Positions 9,675 through 16,654 of a stretch of 41,823 nt of DNA are shown here, one piece after another. Below the pieces are notes generated by a model. The model was given only the letters and a program-made list of their open reading frames with translations, was not told where the DNA came from and did not search any database. Numbering within the stretch: the stretch's first letter is position 1; the number at the start of each line of letters is the position of its first letter. The position numbers and the translations under genes are program-made. The stretch spans positions 1 to 41,823 of IMG/VR virus record IMGVR_UViG_3300042922_000692; one strand, given 5' to 3'. Source of the DNA: a virus.

Positions 9675-9765
9675 TGTATTGTTCTTCTAAACACACAATA
9701 CACTATTTATGTTTTGAGTGTCAATACATTTGTTTTGGTACTAAGAACATCTTTTTTATGTATTG
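9675..9765. promoter_or_regulatory. Divergent switch region with four CAATACA operator half-sites
   Basis: The heptamer CAATACA occurs at 9696-9702 and 9722-9728. Its complement TGTATTG occurs at 9675-9681 and 9759-9765. This puts four copies in 91 bases between the divergent regulator genes. The two inner copies overlap the -10 and the -35 of the leftward promoter, as expected for repressor/Cro sites. Confidence 0.7.
9695..9724 (-). promoter_or_regulatory. Leftward early promoter (PL-type)
   Basis: On the minus strand TTGACA (9719-9724) is a perfect -35, separated by 18 bases from TATTGT (9695-9700). It directs the Cro-like gene and the whole early operon. Operator copies at 9696-9702 and 9722-9728 cover both boxes. 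Confidence 0.75.
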
Positions 9766-9816
9766 TTGTGTTTTGCGTCACTGCACATTTATGATGATCT
9801 TGGGCAGGTGGTAGTT

Positions 9817-10191
9817 ATGAAAAATACCGAAGAACTCGGTAAGAAAATCAATCAGCTTAGACTAAAAAATGATCTCTCGCTCAGGGACTTAGCAGAGAGA
9901 TCGGGTGTGAGTTTTTCTTTTATTAATTCAATAGAAAAGAATCGATTTAACGGATCAAGAGAAACAATCGTCTCCATAGCTAATGCGCTTAAAGGAGCGG
10001 ACAAAAATGAACTTTTGTTGCTGGCTGGATTCTCCCCGGACGAGGAACTAATCGGGGAAGACAATTTATTGTTTGACCCAGACGTCCAGTTCATAGCCCG
10101 CGCCAAGAAGGATATGCACCCGAACAAATTCCGCAAAATGATGGAGCTCGCGAAGAAGGCAAAAGAAATGGTGGAGGGGGACGACGACTGA
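9817..10191 (+). CDS. XRE-family phage repressor (CI-like)
   Basis: 124 residues from the ATG at 9817 (AGGTGG upstream). HTH at about 5-62: ELGKKINQLRLKNDLSLRDLAE, then VSFSFINSIEKNRFNGS. The C-terminal part is short and helical (FRKMMELAKKAKEMVEGDDD), with no LexA-like autoprotease domain. Inactivation by cleavage in trans by the ImmA-type peptidase encoded next is therefore expected, as in ICEBs1 and phage 105 systems. First gene of the rightward lysogeny transcript. Confidence 0.9.
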   Translation: MKNTEELGKKINQLRLKNDLSLRDLAERSGVSFSFINSIEKNRFNGSRETIVSIANALKGADKNELLLLAGFSPDEELIGEDNLLFDPDVQFIARAKKDMHPNKFRKMMELAKKAKEMVEGDDD

Positions 10192-10240
10192 ACAACGGCT
10201 CTCCGCATTAGTTCGTCCAGATTTCAAGCGAGCGATCAGC

Positions 10241-11107
10241 ATGGCGAACAGATTATTGCGAGAGCTTGGAAATCCACAGACGCCGATTGATCCAACAGCA
10301 ATTGCTCAAACATTGAATTGCTTGGTCTCATATGAAGATATGGAAGGATTAGCGGAGGGCTATACTGCGAAGGTTCGTAAAAAAGACGGCAGTTATCACT
10401 ATGTGATTTTCGTAGCTACGGATTACGATGTTCGTTTTACTGAGGAAATCTTAAAGCGAAAGCAACGGTACACTATCGCACATGAGATCGGGCATATCAT
10501 CATGCATCATTCATACGATTGGGGAACAATAGACCCGGAATCTGCACTTTACAACCGCCTAGAAGTGGAGGCTAACTGGTTCGCTTCTCGCCTTCTCATC
10601 CCGGATTATGTTTTCGAAAATGTTAACGACCTCGATCCCGATGTGCTGGCCGACAAATGCCTGGTTAACTATTCATCAGCCAAGAAACGTTTAGAGAAGC
10701 TGGACATTCGAATTTCCCAATCGCTGATTAAAGAGGCTTCTGAGAGTTTTATATGGGGTGAACCAGAAGAGATTGAAGACTCAGGCGCTTCTAATCCAAT
10801 TATTGAATATGAGGCGTGGCAATTCGAGGTAGCAGCTGCCTTAAATATAGAAATGATTATCTGTACGCAATGTGGCCAAGTTCACTCCCGAGGACTAATT
10901 GAGATCTTCCCAGTGTGCAACCAGTGTGATGCCATCATTGATATTGAGCCAATCCAGAGTGTGGGCGATCCTGAACCGATTCCCGATAAGCCAATAGATA
11001 TTCCGCAAAAGAAAATTGAAATTCCGTCCCACCCCCGAAATGAAGAGCAGTGGAATCGCAATATGAAGCAATTGGATAAGCTTCGAAGAATATACGGATA
11101 CGATTGA
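10241..11107 (+). CDS. immA: ImmA/IrrE-family metallopeptidase with C-terminal zinc ribbon
   Basis: 288 residues from the ATG at 10241. The zincin motif YTIAHEIGHIIMHH lies at about residue 77-90, with the downstream EVEANWFASRLLIP helix giving the third ligand. ImmA enzymes cleave the XRE repressor encoded beside them. The C-terminal 120 residues carry a CTQCG and CNQC pair about 20 residues apart, a zinc ribbon, and then a Pro-rich linker; this tail is unusual for ImmA. Homology-like sequence (ALVRPDFKRAIS) continues in frame upstream of the ATG without a good start codon, so translation may begin earlier or be coupled to the repressor. Confidence 0.92.
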   Translation: MANRLLRELGNPQTPIDPTAIAQTLNCLVSYEDMEGLAEGYTAKVRKKDGSYHYVIFVATDYDVRFTEEILKRKQRYTIAHEIGHIIMHHSYDWGTIDPESALYNRLEVEANWFASRLLIPDYVFENVNDLDPDVLADKCLVNYSSAKKRLEKLDIRISQSLIKEASESFIWGEPEEIEDSGASNPIIEYEAWQFEVAAALNIEMIICTQCGQVHSRGLIEIFPVCNQCDAIIDIEPIQSVGDPEPIPDKPIDIPQKKIEIPSHPRNEEQWNRNMKQLDKLRRIYGYD

Positions 11108-11851: not shown

Positions 11852-12841
11852 ATGGCTAAGCCACGAATCTTTGTCAGTTCTACTTATTACGATCTTAAAC
11901 ATATTCGTAGCAATCTTGAAAACTTTATTCATTCTTTCGGATACGACTCTGTATTATTTGAAAGAGGCGATATCCCATTTTTTCATGAAAACCCATTAGA
12001 TGAATCTTGTTATACTGAAATCGATAATTGTCATATGCTTGTTCTTATAATCGGTGGCCGGTATGGAAGTGCAACTTCATCTGAAAAAAAAGCAGATGAT
12101 AATACATTACCGGAGAAATTCAATTCAATTACAAAGAGAGAGTATGAAACTGCTCGAGAGAAAGATATACCAATATTTATTTTTGTCGAAAAAAATGTGA
12201 TGGCAGAATATTATACTTACAAACAAAACAGAGGAAATAACTCTATTAATTATGCTCATGTAGATAACATAAATATTTTTGTACTCCTAGATGATATTCT
12301 TTCACAGAGAAGGAATAACCTCACCAAGGAATTTGAAAATTTCGAGGATATCTCATCATGGTTGAGGGATCAATGGGCAGGCTTATTTGCTGAAGCATTA
12401 ATTCTAAAAAGTACAGATAAGAATCTCAAGGATATGACCATTAAAATAGATGAACTCTCTCAAATAACTGAAGCGATGAAAGAATATACTGAGTCATTAA
12501 TGAGGAAGATTCAACCTGAAAATTTCGAAAAAATTATAAGCGAACATGAAAGAAAAATTGAAACAAATAGAATCAAAAAATTTGCTAAAGAAGATTTGAT
12601 TGATTATCTTATTCAAAAATCAAAAGATCCAGACTATGCAAGAAAGGAAATCAATATTGCAAGAGCATTTGTAATCATGCGCGATTGCGATAACTTAGCC
12701 GACTTCATGAAAAAAATAGATTTCAAAAAAGAATTCATAGATTTCTTTTACATTAATAACAAATCCGCCGCCGATAGAGATTACGACAACATAAAACATC
12801 TATATTTCTCTGAAGAAGAAGTTGCTGCAACCACTAATTAA
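11852..12841 (+). CDS. DUF4062-domain protein (candidate defence/immunity cargo)
   Basis: 329 residues. The N-terminal 120 match DUF4062: KPRIFVSSTYYDLKHIRSNL at the start, CYTEIDNCHMLVLIIGGRYGS at 53-73, and SITKREYETARE at 92-103, the conserved alpha/beta core. In other proteins this domain, TIR-like in size and layout, sits in front of STAND NTPase or effector modules. The remaining 200 residues are helical and charged, with no ATPase motif or membrane span. The gene is markedly AT-rich, lies between the immunity genes and the integrase, and ends at a terminator. Lysogen-expressed superinfection defence is an inference. Confidence 0.85.
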   Translation: MAKPRIFVSSTYYDLKHIRSNLENFIHSFGYDSVLFERGDIPFFHENPLDESCYTEIDNCHMLVLIIGGRYGSATSSEKKADDNTLPEKFNSITKREYETAREKDIPIFIFVEKNVMAEYYTYKQNRGNNSINYAHVDNINIFVLLDDILSQRRNNLTKEFENFEDISSWLRDQWAGLFAEALILKSTDKNLKDMTIKIDELSQITEAMKEYTESLMRKIQPENFEKIISEHERKIETNRIKKFAKEDLIDYLIQKSKDPDYARKEINIARAFVIMRDCDNLADFMKKIDFKKEFIDFFYINNKSAADRDYDNIKHLYFSEEEVAATTN

Positions 12842-12881: not shown

Positions 12882-15017
12882 ATGGTTGCAGTTTCCAAAG
12901 ACATCGACAAGACCATAAATGCCGTCCAGGGCGTCCACCTTTACGCGCGCGTATCGTCCGAGGATCAGCAGGATCGTGAGACGATCGAGAACCAGATTGA
13001 ATTCGGAACGAAGTATTGCGACCTCCACAAGCTCCACATTGAGGGCTGGTTTAAGGATGACGGTGTCTCCGGAACAATTCCACTCGAGCAGCGTCCCGAC
13101 GGCGGCCGGCTAATTGAAGATGCCAAAGCAGGCAGAGTAAAGACGGTCCTCATTTTCAACATGAAGCGCCTCGGCCGTAAAGCTCGCGTTACCCTGGACG
13201 CCGTTTATCAGCTCGAGCAGTACGGTGTAAAAGTAAAGAGTATGACGGAACCTTTCGACACGAGCGATCCGGTCGGGCGGTTCATCATCACAGTTTTGGC
13301 CGGACAAGCTGAGCTCGACCGGGACACCATGCTCGAGACACTCTGGCACGGCGCTAACCGGGCTGCTCGCCTCGGTAAGTGGCTAGGCGGCATTGTCCCG
13401 TTCGGATACCGCAAGAATGACGATGGCTTCATAGAAGTCTCTGAGGAGCCTCTGCCGGGCAAGCCAGATATGACGGAGCCGGACGTAATCCGCCTCATGT
13501 TCGATCTGATCGCGGATCAGAAATGGTCGTCGATCAAAGTGGCGGACTACTTTAACGCCTTAACCATCCCTCCCTCTTACGTTCGCGATGGCCGTAAAGT
13601 CCGGAAGGGAAAGCGTAAAGAGCAGACGGCCGGCGTCTGGACACCTGGTCGAATCACAAATATGATCAGAAGCTCGACTTACAAGGGGATTCACATCTAC
13701 GGTAAGCGATCTACGAAGGATCGGGAGTTAATCGAACGCGAAGTACCGGCGATCGTTTCTGAGGATCAGTGGGAGCGTGCTCAGCTTGTGCTGACCAATA
13801 ACCAAATCGATTCGTTTAAGAACGCCACGAGGAATTATTTGCTTCGCGGATTGGTTCGATGCGGAAAGTGTGGACTTAATTATCATGGCACGAAGTTCCG
13901 CGATAAGGTTTATTATGTCTGCAATGGGAAAATGGCATACAGAGGGCCGGCACAAGGGAAGTGTGAATCTAGAAATGTCCCTGCTTTGTGGCTGGAGGAC
14001 TATGTGTGGTCGAAGTGTGTGGAATTTATCGAAAACCCCGGAGAGCTCATCAAAGAACTCAGCGCGGCCATGGAAGTCCGCAAGTCATCGAAGGAGAAGT
14101 TCGAGGAAGAACGGCAACTCATCATCAAAGCTTTGAACGAGAAGGATGAGGAGAAGCAAGAGATCCTCGCTCTATTCCGCAAGAAGATCATCACGGCCGC
14201 TGACGTCGAAGCCCAACTGCAGGAAATGATGTACGAACGCGTCTCCCTCGAGCAGCGGATCCGGGATCTCGAGCAACAGATCGTAAACGAGGAAGGAATG
14301 CTTGATAAATTCGATTCCGCGGAATTGCTCCTCGCCCAGATGAAGCAGAAGCTCGACAATGATCCGTCGTTCGAAACCAAACGAGAAATCGTTAAAACAT
14401 TAGTCAATGAAATCTTAATCGATTCCAAAGATCCAGATGGTCCGGATGACGATGGTGGGAACGATGATGGCCCTCGGAAGCCTAAATCACCGGTGACCGT
14501 TAATGTCCGGTTCACCTTCAGTAATTTCAAGGTTGATTCACGAACCCCTGTCCGTGCAATTAATAACCTTGAAATATACATAGAGCGTCGGACTTCCGCT
14601 CCACATCAAAGAGAAGTCACTGGTGAACCCGACGAAACGCCGGGAGCGAGGCTTCGTCATACTCGTATGTTACGTAATTATTCGATTTCTTACCTTGGCA
14701 GCATCGCAGGTTTGTCTGAGCAATCGATAATTGTAACAGAGTTAAGAAATAACATCCCCAATCCCCAAACGCTCCGGAAGCTCGCGAATGCATTGAAGGT
14801 GCCTATTTGTTATTTGGGTTGCTTCGAGATACTCCCGGAGGACACGCTCGCGAATAAAATCCGTAAGGCTCGCCTTTACATGGGCTATACGAAACAAGAG
14901 TTTGCTGAATTAATTGGATCTGATGCGAAGTCCGTTCGTTATTGGGAGAGAGGTTCGAGGATACCTTCTGATAGGTTCATGCCTTTAATAGAAGAATCAC
15001 TTCAGATACTTTCATGA
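12882..15017 (+). CDS. int: Large serine integrase with tandem C-terminal XRE-type HTH domains
   Basis: 711 residues, longer than typical large serine recombinases. AAGGAGGAACGAC precedes the ATG. The resolvase domain (17-165) has the catalytic YARVSSEDQQ, with Ser25. A Recombinase domain spans about 190-300. The zinc ribbon starts CGKCG (about 327-331), with further cysteines near 345 and 360, and a coiled coil follows at about 385-470. After an acidic Asp/Gly/Pro linker (about 513-537) come two HTH_XRE-like units. The first (596-642) has LGSIAGLSEQSIIVTELRN; the second (655-695) has RKARLYMGYTKQEFAELIG and VRYWERGSRIPS. The enzyme would integrate the phage at attP/attB; the HTH tail is unusual. 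Its 3' end overlaps a convergent gene by 6 bases. Confidence 0.95.
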   Translation: MVAVSKDIDKTINAVQGVHLYARVSSEDQQDRETIENQIEFGTKYCDLHKLHIEGWFKDDGVSGTIPLEQRPDGGRLIEDAKAGRVKTVLIFNMKRLGRKARVTLDAVYQLEQYGVKVKSMTEPFDTSDPVGRFIITVLAGQAELDRDTMLETLWHGANRAARLGKWLGGIVPFGYRKNDDGFIEVSEEPLPGKPDMTEPDVIRLMFDLIADQKWSSIKVADYFNALTIPPSYVRDGRKVRKGKRKEQTAGVWTPGRITNMIRSSTYKGIHIYGKRSTKDRELIEREVPAIVSEDQWERAQLVLTNNQIDSFKNATRNYLLRGLVRCGKCGLNYHGTKFRDKVYYVCNGKMAYRGPAQGKCESRNVPALWLEDYVWSKCVEFIENPGELIKELSAAMEVRKSSKEKFEEERQLIIKALNEKDEEKQEILALFRKKIITAADVEAQLQEMMYERVSLEQRIRDLEQQIVNEEGMLDKFDSAELLLAQMKQKLDNDPSFETKREIVKTLVNEILIDSKDPDGPDDDGGNDDGPRKPKSPVTVNVRFTFSNFKVDSRTPVRAINNLEIYIERRTSAPHQREVTGEPDETPGARLRHTRMLRNYSISYLGSIAGLSEQSIIVTELRNNIPNPQTLRKLANALKVPICYLGCFEILPEDTLANKIRKARLYMGYTKQEFAELIGSDAKSVRYWERGSRIPSDRFMPLIEESLQILS

Positions 15018-15278
15018 AAATAGATCACGTTCCCAATGAGGCTTCGATTTTTCCTTTACATAAGATAGAGTCGTAGGACTTCCTATCTTCATGGCCAAAT
15101 GGTTTTCAGGATCCCAAACGATAAAATGCTTGTCCGCCAGCTCCTGCAATGAATCAGTTATCTGTTTCCGGGACCACTTCAATCTGCGGACAAGCTCGTC
15201 GATCGATTGCGGCCGTCCATACAGGCGATGATGATGAAATAAAATAGTCAGCAATTTCCTAGGCTTATCATCCAGCAT
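15012..15278 (-). CDS. SOS-regulated winged-helix protein (candidate RDF/excisionase or antirepressor)
   Basis: 88 residues from the ATG at 15278 (GGAGG nine bases upstream). Residues 5-60 read as a winged helix: RKLLTILFHHHRLYGRPQSI, DELVRRLKWSRKQITDSLQE, then a wing at DKHFIVWDPENHLAMKIG. The promoter contains a LexA-type box in its spacer. The gene converges on, and overlaps by 6 bases, the integrase gene, so its mRNA would be antisense to it. Size, DNA-binding fold, SOS control and position fit a recombination directionality factor or antirepressor. Both are inferences. Confidence 0.8.
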   Translation of the reverse strand: MLDDKPRKLLTILFHHHRLYGRPQSIDELVRRLKWSRKQITDSLQELADKHFIVWDPENHLAMKIGSPTTLSYVKEKSKPHWERDLFS

Positions 15279-15308
15279 GGGTCGTACCTCCGTTATATTT
15301 GTACGATC

Positions 15309-15338
15309 ATTATATTACGAACATTCGTTCTTGTTCAA
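15309..15338 (-). promoter_or_regulatory. Promoter of the winged-helix gene
   Basis: On the minus strand TTGAAC (15333-15338) and TATAAT (15309-15314) are separated by 18 bases, a strong sigma-A promoter about 30 bases upstream of the start codon. Confidence 0.8.
15318..15331. promoter_or_regulatory. LexA/DinR (SOS) box
   Basis: CGAACATTCGTTCT lies between the -10 and -35 boxes. It matches the Firmicute LexA consensus CGAACRNRYGTTYG at 12 of 14 positions, including both CGAAC and GTTC half-sites with correct spacing. LexA bound here would occlude RNA polymerase; DNA damage would release it. Confidence 0.75.
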
Positions 15339-15345
15339 GAAACAG

Positions 15346-15375
15346 AAAAAGCCCGCTCGATTAGAGCAGGCTTTT
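15346..15375. terminator. Intrinsic terminator at the end of the late operon
   Basis: AAGCCCGCTC (15349-15358) pairs with GAGCAGGCTT (15364-15373) in a 10-bp stem with one G-U pair. A T-run follows on the minus strand. The amidase stop codon sits in the loop. It insulates the late operon from the SOS promoter. Confidence 0.85.
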
Positions 15376-16251
15376 CGCTTTCATGAATGTATATACGATC
15401 AATAGTTTCCGGAGTGCTTCCTTTGCATACTTCCCGCCTTTAACCAACGTATCGTAAAGGCTGAGAATCTTGGCCACGATGCCGGCGGCTGTCACTTCCC
15501 CCATATATCCGATTTGCGGCAATACATCCGCGAGCCAAAGCAGTTTTTCCTCCGCCGCTTTCCCCCACTTTGGATCTACGAGCTTACCGCCGAGATCCCG
15601 AGAGCGTTCCGTTGCCGCATACGCCTTCGCGTAGTCCCCATTCCCACCGCGTTGGTAATCGATGTACTCCTCGAACATCTCGAGCGTCATTCCATCCGCC
15701 TTCGCCAGCGTGTTATACAACCGAGTCCAAGGAAACTTTAGCCCTGGACAAAAAGGTTTCCGAACAGGATCAATCTGGAAGTGTCCGAGAACGTAATATG
15801 GGTTCAATTGTATCCGGTACCCAAATTCATTTTGACACTCCTCCTGAATATATTTGTGAAGCCAAGCGCTGCTCCAGAACTGTGGTTCAGTAAGATCACC
15901 ATCGACTCCATGACCGGCATATCCTTCGTGCTCAATTCCCACGCAATAAAGATTCGGGTTTACGCCCATCTGCTGAACGAGAGGTTGTTTACTAGCCTTT
16001 ATGGCCTCCGCAGTCAGGCCCTGCGTATACGCCGCTCTACTAAGTCGCACATACTGATGGATAATGCCGTCACGTCCGACGCCGTAATGACTGGAGCCGG
16101 GAGCGTTTGGATTTGCAAAGGTGTTGTACATACTTCCCATTGTTCCGACACTAATATGATCAACAATTGCGATTGGAACGTAAGCTTTGTTGTTTCGGAT
16201 CCGTGCGTCGTGCTTTGTGATCTTATCGCCGCGCCAAATCATTTCAACCAT
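15361..16251 (-). CDS. Endolysin: N-acetylmuramoyl-L-alanine amidase (Amidase_2/PGRP fold)
   Basis: 296 residues from the ATG at 16251 (GAGGAGGCGCGTACC upstream). The zinc amidase core occupies about 1-190. Ligands fit His32 (AIVDHISVGT), His157 (VLGHFQIDP) and Cys168 (KPFCPG); Glu107 in VGIEHEGYAG fits the catalytic acid. It cuts the amide between MurNAc and L-Ala. Residues about 195-296 are helical and resemble no known wall-binding repeat I can name. It is the last gene of the late operon, after holin-like genes. Confidence 0.93.
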   Translation of the reverse strand: MVEMIWRGDKITKHDARIRNNKAYVPIAIVDHISVGTMGSMYNTFANPNAPGSSHYGVGRDGIIHQYVRLSRAAYTQGLTAEAIKASKQPLVQQMGVNPNLYCVGIEHEGYAGHGVDGDLTEPQFWSSAWLHKYIQEECQNEFGYRIQLNPYYVLGHFQIDPVRKPFCPGLKFPWTRLYNTLAKADGMTLEMFEEYIDYQRGGNGDYAKAYAATERSRDLGGKLVDPKWGKAAEEKLLWLADVLPQIGYMGEVTAAGIVAKILSLYDTLVKGGKYAKEALRKLLIVYTFMKAKSLL

Positions 16252-16264
16252 GGTACGCGCCTCC

Positions 16265-16654
16265 TCAGTACAGATTCCGAGCGTCTGCACCCTCAGCTTC
16301 CGCTTGCTTGACATCCTTATTCGCTTCAAGGTAATTGGCACCAGTTACACCTGCAGCCACCGCAAGTAGAATCTCCGTAGACAAACCGAGCTTGAATAAC
16401 TCATCCAGGACAACGCAAAGAAAAGCGACTGCCGTGAAGATGAGCTTCCTCGAGTTCAGACGAAAGCCCGAAGGTAAGCCATTAGCATCTCTTACAACCG
16501 TGACGAGCTCTTGAGATTTGAAATAGCCGATCAGTAGGACTGCCGCGGCAATGAGGTTTGCAGGATCGATCTCGAAACCAAAATAGCGATTAACCGCGGC
16601 GATAATGACGGCGCCGAATGCCGTAAGAGAATCAGGCTTGATCCATTTTTTCAT
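16265..16654 (-). CDS. Holin-like membrane protein
   Basis: 129 residues from the ATG at 16654. GGAGGAAGATACAC precedes this ATG, so it is a genuine start even though the frame stays open far upstream. Four hydrophobic segments lie near 10-24, 33-46, 70-87 and 90-107, and the tail is charged. Directly upstream of the endolysin. A holin role is inferred from topology and place. Confidence 0.8.
   Translation of the reverse strand: MKKWIKPDSLTAFGAVIIAAVNRYFGFEIDPANLIAAAVLLIGYFKSQELVTVVRDANGLPSGFRLNSRKLIFTAVAFLCVVLDELFKLGLSTEILLAVAAGVTGANYLEANKDVKQAEAEGADARNLY

What the first reader, a model, noticed from the sequence alone, without database searches (positions are those of the whole stretch)
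15012..15338. SOS-controlled winged-helix gene antisense to the integrase: candidate excision switch
A LexA-type box (CGAACATTCGTTCT) sits between TTGAAC and TATAAT of a leftward promoter. The only gene it drives encodes an 88-residue winged helix whose end overlaps the integrase end. DNA damage would thus produce a small DNA-binding protein beside, and a transcript against, the integrase. That fits a recombination directionality factor or an antirepressor and would tie excision directly to the host SOS response.
Basis: partly seen in the sequence, partly recalled or inferred. Interest (0 to 1): 0.78.

Follow-up and report, generated by a model that had tools for sequence, protein, structure and literature searches.

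The report
SOS-switched DNA-binding gene beside self-splitting integrase
A small phage gene next to the integrase carries a conserved DNA-damage switch and is predicted to encode a LexA-like DNA-binding protein, and the neighbouring integrase gene appears to contain the phage's own attachment site, so that in related prophages integration cuts a DNA-binding tail off the enzyme.

Summary
An 88-codon gene (15278-15012, minus strand) has a ribosome site, a TTGAAC/TATAAT promoter and a LexA-type box in the promoter spacer. One box alone is not significant; conservation decides it: in 24 of 43 clusters of relatives (window included) a perfect GAACN4GTTC core lies upstream, against 1 of 345 control ORFs. 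The predicted fold is a winged helix whose six best structural matches are LexA DNA-binding domains, within a tie. Relatives sit in Paenibacillus phages, plasmids and chromosomes, with tyrosine, serine or no detected integrase, so an integrase-specific excision factor is unlikely. I read it as an SOS-induced, RecA-insensitive, LexA-like regulator; its target is unknown. The antisense-to-integrase idea fails in related prophages, because the attachment site lies inside the integrase gene (core 14549-14557 here). In 7 of 8 such prophages, joining host flanks restores a comM-like open frame and joining phage ends gives a 704-727 codon integrase frame with a tandem helix-turn-helix tail (random junctions do both in 18 of 2092). 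Integration thus cuts the tail off the recombinase; the SOS gene stays with the tail. Mx8 is a bacterial precedent; I found none for a serine integrase.

The parts
15012..15278 (-). SOS-controlled small winged-helix gene (88 aa, LexA-DNA-binding-domain-like)
   Evidence: (phrog_3502, E 7e-7)
15287..15291 (-). ribosome-binding site GGAGG, 8 nt before ATG
   Evidence: read
15318..15331 (.). LexA (SOS) box CGAACATTCGTTCT in the promoter spacer
   Evidence: conserved upstream of relatives
15309..15338 (-). promoter TTGAAC-18-TATAAT
15346..15376 (-). terminator-like hairpin between the endolysin gene and the SOS gene
12882..15017 (+). large serine recombinase (integrase), 711 aa, with C-terminal tandem helix-turn-helix tail: fused (free-phage) form
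14528..14571 (.). inferred attP inside the integrase gene: core TGTCCGTGC 14549-14557, arms CAAGGTT 14528-14534 and AACCTTG 14565-14571
   Evidence: by homology with prophages of relatives
14550..15014 (+). integrase tail (residues 557-711, HTH domains at about 588-644 and 660-708) that is a separate open frame in lysogens of relatives
15361..16341 (-). endolysin (Amidase_2), at the end of a run of leftward genes
9763..10191 (+). XRE-type repressor (ImmR-like)
   Evidence: ImmR likeness recalled
10241..11107 (+). ImmA/IrrE-type metalloprotease (Peptidase_M78), a separate candidate route for damage induction
   Evidence: role recalled from ICEBs1/phi105

Best explanation
The gene belongs to a family of LexA-controlled genes found in Paenibacillus phages, plasmids and chromosomes. 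LexA sits in the promoter spacer and keeps the gene off; DNA damage releases it. The product is a winged helix like the DNA-binding half of LexA but without the RecA-sensitive protease half, so once made it should persist during SOS. The most likely mechanism is DNA binding as a second-tier repressor or timing regulator of the damage response or of lytic or lysis genes; this step is inferred. It is not an integrase partner in general. Its overlap with the integrase reflects gene order: lysis genes, then this gene, then the attP-int region. Here attP itself lies inside the integrase gene, so in related lysogens the SOS gene is beside the cut-off tandem-HTH tail and far from the recombinase (shown by sequence in relatives, inferred for this phage).
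For: Box in promoter. Box conservation, 24 of 43 clusters against 1 of 345 controls. The box lies 29-84 bp before the start in most single-gene members, or about 220-300 bp before it when a small upstream ORF overlaps the gene start. LexA-like fold: top Foldseek hits 3k2z and 3jsp; VIA-align Z 10.2-10.8 for six LexA entries, rmsd 1.5-2.3 over 65-70 residues. True LexA_DNA_bind-only proteins occur in the same slot in L145 (E 2.5e-22, perfect box) and just before the relative in L003 (E 8.5e-16). A YolD gene (PF08863, E 1.7e-23 for the one member searched), a damage-linked family, is one or two genes downstream in 11 loci. Elements of different integrase types carry the gene. Split integrase and restored comM-like frame in 7 of 8 prophages against 18 of 2092 random junctions.
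Against: Resemblance to LexA is weak by sequence: Pfam LexA_DNA_bind 11.9 bits against a cut-off of 23.7 and only fifth in the list, after HVO_A0114, Imm1, DprA_WH and TrmB, all below cut-off; in NCBIfam the archaeal Lrs14 (3.2e-5) and Sta1 families rank above lexA (0.029), all below cut-off. No Foldseek hit reaches E 0.001, and Z differences under 1 from other winged helices count as ties. The presumed recognition helix is the most variable of four segments measured (mean entropy 2.42 bits against 1.27 for helix 1), so members do not share one obvious DNA site and may not all bind DNA. No target operator was looked for systematically or found. 8 of 43 cluster representatives have no box within one core mismatch in 350 bp. 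In 3 of 7 lysogens the detached tail has no in-frame ATG, GTG or TTG within 35 nt of the core.
Confidence: 0.6

Rival explanations
1. Recombination directionality factor: damage-induced protein binds the serine integrase and switches it to excision.
For: Gene abuts the integrase here; a relative was found near the tail at 4 of 9 prophage ends of this integrase type.
Against: Of 29 virus or phage records with the gene, 15 have PF00589, 8 have PF07508, one of these both, and 7 neither (some records are fragments and some PF00589 matches are frames of only about 190 aa). Also on plasmids and at a shared chromosomal place. Harrison, with a related integrase, has no family member in the 14-kb stretch searched. 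In Fern a separate gene is annotated as possible excisionase.
Confidence: 0.07
2. Antirepressor or lytic activator: the SOS-made winged helix counteracts the 9763-10191 repressor or turns on lytic promoters, like Tum of phage 186 (recalled).
For: SOS control, and presence in viral contigs and phages.
Against: Also at a shared chromosomal place and in plasmid stretches that list no phage lytic genes (only 12-16 kb seen). This phage already carries an ImmR/ImmA-like pair. No antirepressor family matched.
Confidence: 0.15
3. Accessory factor of an SOS mutagenesis system: works with YolD and a Y-family polymerase rather than as a promoter-bound regulator.
For: YolD-type gene one or two genes downstream in 11 loci. 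YolD proteins are proposed UmuD counterparts of LexA-controlled Y-family polymerases (PMC6511836, passages). An ORF of about 65 aa or more that resembles WYL/YolD-type barrels by eye lies just upstream in 28 loci.
Against: I recognised no Y-family polymerase among the neighbours that I read or searched by family; this was not a complete scan. This phage has no YolD gene beside it. Two members of the upstream ORF family had no Pfam match.
Confidence: 0.15
4. Antisense switch: the SOS transcript silences the integrase mRNA.
For: Convergent 6-bp overlap and no minus-strand terminator-like site found between 14500 and the gene.
Against: In related lysogens only the tail, not the recombinase, lies downstream; on the plasmids shown no integrase gene overlaps it.
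Confidence: 0.05

Closest known systems
LexA DNA-binding domain (E. coli 3jso/3jsp, T. maritima 3k2z)
   Same: Predicted winged-helix fold over residues 1-66/70, rmsd 1.5-2.3; SOS box control of the gene
   Different: 88 aa, no protease/dimer domain; Pfam LexA_DNA_bind below cut-off; variable helix 3
PHROG 3502 and 'MarR family' genes of Fernvirus phages (Fern, BN12)
   Same: Homologous protein, same slot beside the integrase region, LexA boxes upstream of the two-gene unit
   Different: Fern and BN12 have a tyrosine-type integrase (PF00589 match) and an upstream partner ORF of 64-65 aa; the window has neither
Integrase of Paenibacillus phages Harrison and Paisley
   Same: 52.7% identity over residues 18-710 including the HTH tail; Harrison has the attP-like core inside the gene
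   Different: No member of the SOS gene family in the 14-kb Harrison stretch; a different 78-aa gene is adjacent
Phage Mx8 IntP (Myxococcus), cited in PMC4383910
   Same: Bacterial phage integrase extending across attP; by its title, integration alters the C-terminal region (passage and reference title seen; paper not held)
   Different: Islander uses 'integrase' for tyrosine recombinases only; here a large serine recombinase loses a discrete tandem-HTH domain
Archaeal 'suicidal' integrases (SSV1 type), PMC8371274
   Same: attP inside the integrase gene, gene split by integration (passages)
   Different: Archaeal tyrosine enzymes split so that the catalytic C-terminal part is cut off; here the catalytic part stays whole
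Integration-dependent immunity of mycobacteriophage BPs, PMC4557955
   Same: attP inside a regulatory ORF, so integration changes a protein's C-terminus (passages)
   Different: There the repressor, here the integrase, is changed

Membership tests
LexA (SOS) regulon gene | GAACN4GTTC-type box overlapping the promoter | tested here: met
LexA (SOS) regulon gene | LexA binding and induction by DNA damage | not testable with these tools
   needs gel shift and RNA measurement
LexA repressor family | LexA_DNA_bind domain above curated cut-off | tested here: not met
   11.9 bits against 23.7; lexA NCBIfam 13.9 against 110.95
LexA repressor family | C-terminal self-cleaving protease domain | tested here: not met
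   88 aa, no such domain matched
LexA repressor family | LexA-type winged-helix fold | tested here: inconclusive
   best six matches are LexA, Z 10.2-10.8, next 9.9: within a tie
PHROG 3502 / Paenibacillus SOS winged-helix family | Significant profile match over the winged helix | tested here: met
   E 7e-7. The invariant M1 L2 D4 R7 K8 are no independent support, because the loci were fished with that motif; L47 and W55 (98% each) are outside it
Serine-integrase recombination directionality factor | Tied to one integrase type | tested here: not met
Serine-integrase recombination directionality factor | Turns attL x attR recombination on | not testable with these tools
   needs in vitro assay
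Large serine recombinase (integrase) | Resolvase, Recombinase and zinc-ribbon domains | tested here: met
Suicidal (SSV-type) integrase | attP inside the integrase gene | tested here: met
   in relatives; attP-like site in the window
Suicidal (SSV-type) integrase | Tyrosine recombinase | tested here: not met
   serine recombinase domains
Suicidal (SSV-type) integrase | Integration separates the catalytic part | tested here: not met
   the one lysogen enzyme searched keeps all three recombinase domains (L142)
Integration-dependent immunity (BPs type) | attP inside the repressor gene | tested here: not met
   attP-like site is in the integrase gene; repressor at 9763-10191 is elsewhere

The most novel reading that the evidence does not exclude
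Integration itself resets the integrase. The free phage makes a 711-aa enzyme with a tandem-HTH tail; the lysogen makes a tail-less enzyme of roughly 520-610 aa and may make the tail as a free DNA-binding protein from the interrupted comM-like gene. The tail acts as a built-in directionality or repression module, and the SOS gene that converges on the detached tail (LexA-like protein plus antisense transcript) relieves it after DNA damage, so that excision is tied to SOS through the tail rather than through the recombinase.
Probability: 0.15. Interest if true: 0.9.

Novelty: new variant of a known kind. Interest (0 to 1): 0.64.

Why it matters
Serine integrases are one-way tools whose directionality is a live question in phage biology and genome engineering. 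A natural family in which integration swaps the enzyme's C-terminus gives two forms, tailed and tail-less, that can be compared directly in vitro. The SOS gene family adds a LexA-controlled DNA-binding protein of unknown function, widely conserved in Paenibacillus, that is shared by hosts, plasmids and phages.

Tried and rejected
Single-sequence searches with the 88-aa protein found nothing in viral or genome contigs or in phages and two weak plasmid hits; these opened the family through P0003 and alignment A2. Alignment A1 found nothing in viral contigs. The integrase as a query found no confirmed viral contig. Against 392 genomes of the order, the 88-aa protein alone matched 46 at E 0.001. 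Sequence search against solved structures gave only weak hits (best E 0.014, a SarA homologue; LexA third, 0.21). The other two GAACN4GTTC sites (15877, 19604) lie inside the endolysin and a 1458-aa ORF and were set aside. RDF, antisense-to-integrase and LexA-family membership were rejected as explained. G327 is kept in the count as the one failure of 8 (no core found; the junctions look inverted). G086 was not in the joining test because its contigs end near the junctions; G352 and G210 were not fetched. Tail-like matches also occur in two listed genomes without a close integrase hit (G044, G316), so a tail-like ORF alone is not proof of a split integrase. Two loci with short proteins (L066, L093) were dropped before the 43-cluster count. 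Literature: 10 of 10 searches used; papers were seen only as search listings or found passages, none in full. PMC178153 (Mx8) is not held, so its content rests on its title and the Islander sentence. Mx8 does not fit the review's statement that self-disrupting integrases are exclusively archaeal.
Full report
What was checked. The window is a 41,823-base virus record. The reported gene is present as described: 88 codons on the minus strand (15278-15012), ribosome site GGAGG 8 nt before the ATG (read), promoter TTGAAC-18-TATAAT, and a LexA-type box in the spacer. It overlaps the integrase end by 6 bp. A terminator-like hairpin separates it from the endolysin gene. The minus-strand ORFs listed further left, down to the repressor region, all lie antisense to plus-strand genes (the longest 193 aa, 14000-14581); I took them as chance and tested one of them (9852-10208, no Pfam match).

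Is the box more than chance? Alone, no: three GAACN4GTTC sites in the window against 0.88 expected, and 7 of 100 shuffles give as many. Relatives decide. The protein matched PHROG 3502 (unknown function, E 7e-7) and weakly two Paenibacillus plasmid proteins. Starting from one of these I reached Fernvirus phages and more plasmids, then 54 loci in genome contigs and 27 in viral contigs. Of 89 loci in all (54 + 27 + 7 named plasmid or phage loci + the window; some are copies of each other), 46 have a perfect core and 73 have at most one mismatch within 350 bp upstream; random stretches of the same loci give 0.66% and 9.1% of 14,588. After clustering at 70% identity (87 loci, 43 clusters, first member by name taken), 24 and 35 of 43, against 1 and 31 of 345 upstream regions of other ORFs; one-sided Fisher p about 2e-25 and 6e-24. 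Two arrangements recur: the box directly before the gene, or before a small upstream ORF that overlaps the gene start (this ORF family is in 28 loci). SOS control of the family is therefore strongly supported by sequence; LexA binding itself is not shown.

What the protein is. AlphaFold2 with 44 family members gives a winged helix (pLDDT about 79-90 up to residue 60, tail below 60). By sequence it is below the LexA cut-offs, and other winged-helix families score slightly better, also below cut-off. It has no protease half. Two related loci support a link with LexA: in G086 the gene in the same slot, with a perfect box, encodes a true LexA DNA-binding domain alone (E 2.5e-22), and in the P. polymyxa plasmid pAP1 such a domain-only gene (E 8.5e-16) directly precedes the relative. 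Against a shared LexA-box target, helix 3 is the most variable of the four segments measured.

Where the family lives. It occurs in P. larvae Fernvirus phages, in Paenibacillus plasmids, downstream of an amidase-like gene in 18 loci (the label amidase is by eye, and two neighbouring families were confirmed as holins), and at a shared chromosomal place in L025, L028, L030, L031, L033, L034 and L046 (P. polymyxa-group species by recall). YolD-type genes lie one or two genes downstream in 11 loci; YolD is a proposed UmuD counterpart under LexA control (PMC6511836, passages). Of 29 virus or phage records with the gene, 15 have a PF00589 match, 8 a PF07508 match, one both and 7 neither; several are fragments. 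Taking the 19 IMG/VR records whose integrase frame is at least 370 aa, the gene lies within 10 kb of the record end opposite to the integrase in 14, and mid-record in 5 (my arithmetic; record ends are IMG/VR's). So the usual order seems to be lysis genes, this gene, attachment site, integrase, and the gene and the integrase are neighbours when the genome is circular. A dedicated excision factor would not be expected to follow elements with different integrase chemistries, plasmids and chromosomes.

The larger finding: the attachment site is inside the integrase gene. The integrase (711 aa) is a large serine recombinase with two C-terminal helix-turn-helix domains. In 344 Paenibacillaceae genomes, 11 close homologues (57-67% identity) all match only up to residue 454-560, and each of these 11 genomes has a separate match to residues of about 554-710. 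In 8 of the 11 the two pieces lie on one contig and strand, 38-104 kb apart, tail first; in G086, G352 and G210 they are on different contigs. I fetched both ends for the 8 plus G086. The ends share CTTGTCCGTGCGGAT(A) in two prophages and a 10-nt core in two more; in the other three the core was placed with up to two mismatches. The motif TGTCCGTGC is at 14549 in the window, once on the plus strand. Joining the host flanks at this motif restores an open frame of 533-586 codons in 7 of 8; joining the phage ends gives an integrase frame of 704-727 codons in the same 7 (stop-to-stop lengths). Random junctions within 150 bp do both in 18 of 2092. G327 fails: no core was found and the junctions look inverted. 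The host gene is comM-like: in one prophage each, the left part matches Mg_chelatase (3.6e-76, L131), the right part Mg_chelatase_C (4e-28, L142), and the detached tail HTH_3 twice (L131); the crossover falls in the codons for NPCPCG in 6 of 7. The name comM is my recall; the domains are. The window and Harrison sites and the 7 rebuilt ones share a dyad centred near the core (window weakest, 16 of 500 shuffles as good; others 0-4 of 500). The window and phages Harrison and Paisley carry the fused form, as expected of unintegrated DNA, and the window has no comM-like gene (only weak ATPase-type matches, best E 0.003). For this exact phage no lysogen was seen, so its attP is inferred by homology.

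What follows for the reported gene. In lysogens of this integrase type the SOS gene stays beside the detached tail, convergent with it: a family member was found at 4 of 9 prophage ends (G366, G108, G066, G343), each with a box within one core mismatch, and a LexA-domain gene at a fifth (G086); none was found at G221, G209, G280 or G327 in the stretches fetched. Its transcript would run against the tail and towards comM, not against the recombinase. Whether the tail is made in lysogens is uncertain: an in-frame ATG, GTG or TTG lies within 35 nt of the core in 4 of 7 and further away in 3.

Mechanism. Shown by sequence: conserved SOS box, presence across phages, plasmids and chromosomes, and loss of the integrase tail on integration in relatives. 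Predicted: winged-helix fold. Inferred: LexA represses the gene; its product binds DNA and, lacking the cleavable half, acts during SOS as a second-tier regulator. The phage also has an ImmR/ImmA-like pair (9763-11107), a known route for damage induction in other elements (recalled), so this gene need not be the induction trigger. The role of the tail (autoregulation, site choice or directionality) is open.

Novelty. The SOS gene is a new member, of unknown function, of a known kind (LexA-regulon DNA-binding protein). The integrase arrangement is a new variant of a known kind: Islander's authors note that Mx8 and SSV integrases extend across attP (PMC4383910, passages); a review calls self-disrupting integrases exclusively archaeal (PMC8371274, passages); BPs-type phages place attP in the repressor (PMC4557955, passages). 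In two P. larvae phage surveys a term search found no attP (PMC6070908; PMC11860570), and in the second no SOS or LexA. My searches showed no serine integrase with attP inside its gene among the listings and passages seen; only open-licence papers are held, so this is weak evidence of absence.

Noticed in passing
window 11852-12841: DUF4062 gene (E 5e-21) just before the integrase, same strand; possible cargo or defence gene.
   Followed up: no
L145 2987-3253 (G086): An 89-codon open frame with a LexA DNA-binding domain only and a perfect LexA box, in the slot beside the detached integrase tail.
   Followed up: partly
L143/L144 (G327): Integrase and tail 104 kb apart with junctions that look inverted; possible inversion after integration, or inverted insertion.
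   Followed up: partly
L007 5814-6011, L012 5811-6008 and the 28 loci of cluster 1: A small ORF (65 aa in Fern) that overlaps the start of the winged-helix gene and lies behind the same SOS boxes; looks like a short WYL/YolD-type barrel by eye, no Pfam match for two members, PHROG 6785.
   Followed up: partly
L066 and L093: A genome contig labelled Pseudoxanthomonas carries the same locus as viral contig L093 and shares neighbour families with Paenibacillus loci; it may be a contaminant.
   Followed up: no
L080 8714-9517; cluster 20 (5 loci): Actin-like (ALP_N) genes a few genes from the SOS gene suggest that some carriers are phage-plasmids.
   Followed up: no
attL ends in L129-L142: The truncated comM-like frame stops 9-54 nt after the start of the core and overlaps the tail reading frame, so the tail might be translated by coupling to comM in some hosts.
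   Followed up: partly
G044 C76 and G316 C172: Tail-like tandem-HTH frames (271 and 259 aa open) without a close integrase hit listed in the same genome: remnants, or independent proteins.
   Followed up: no
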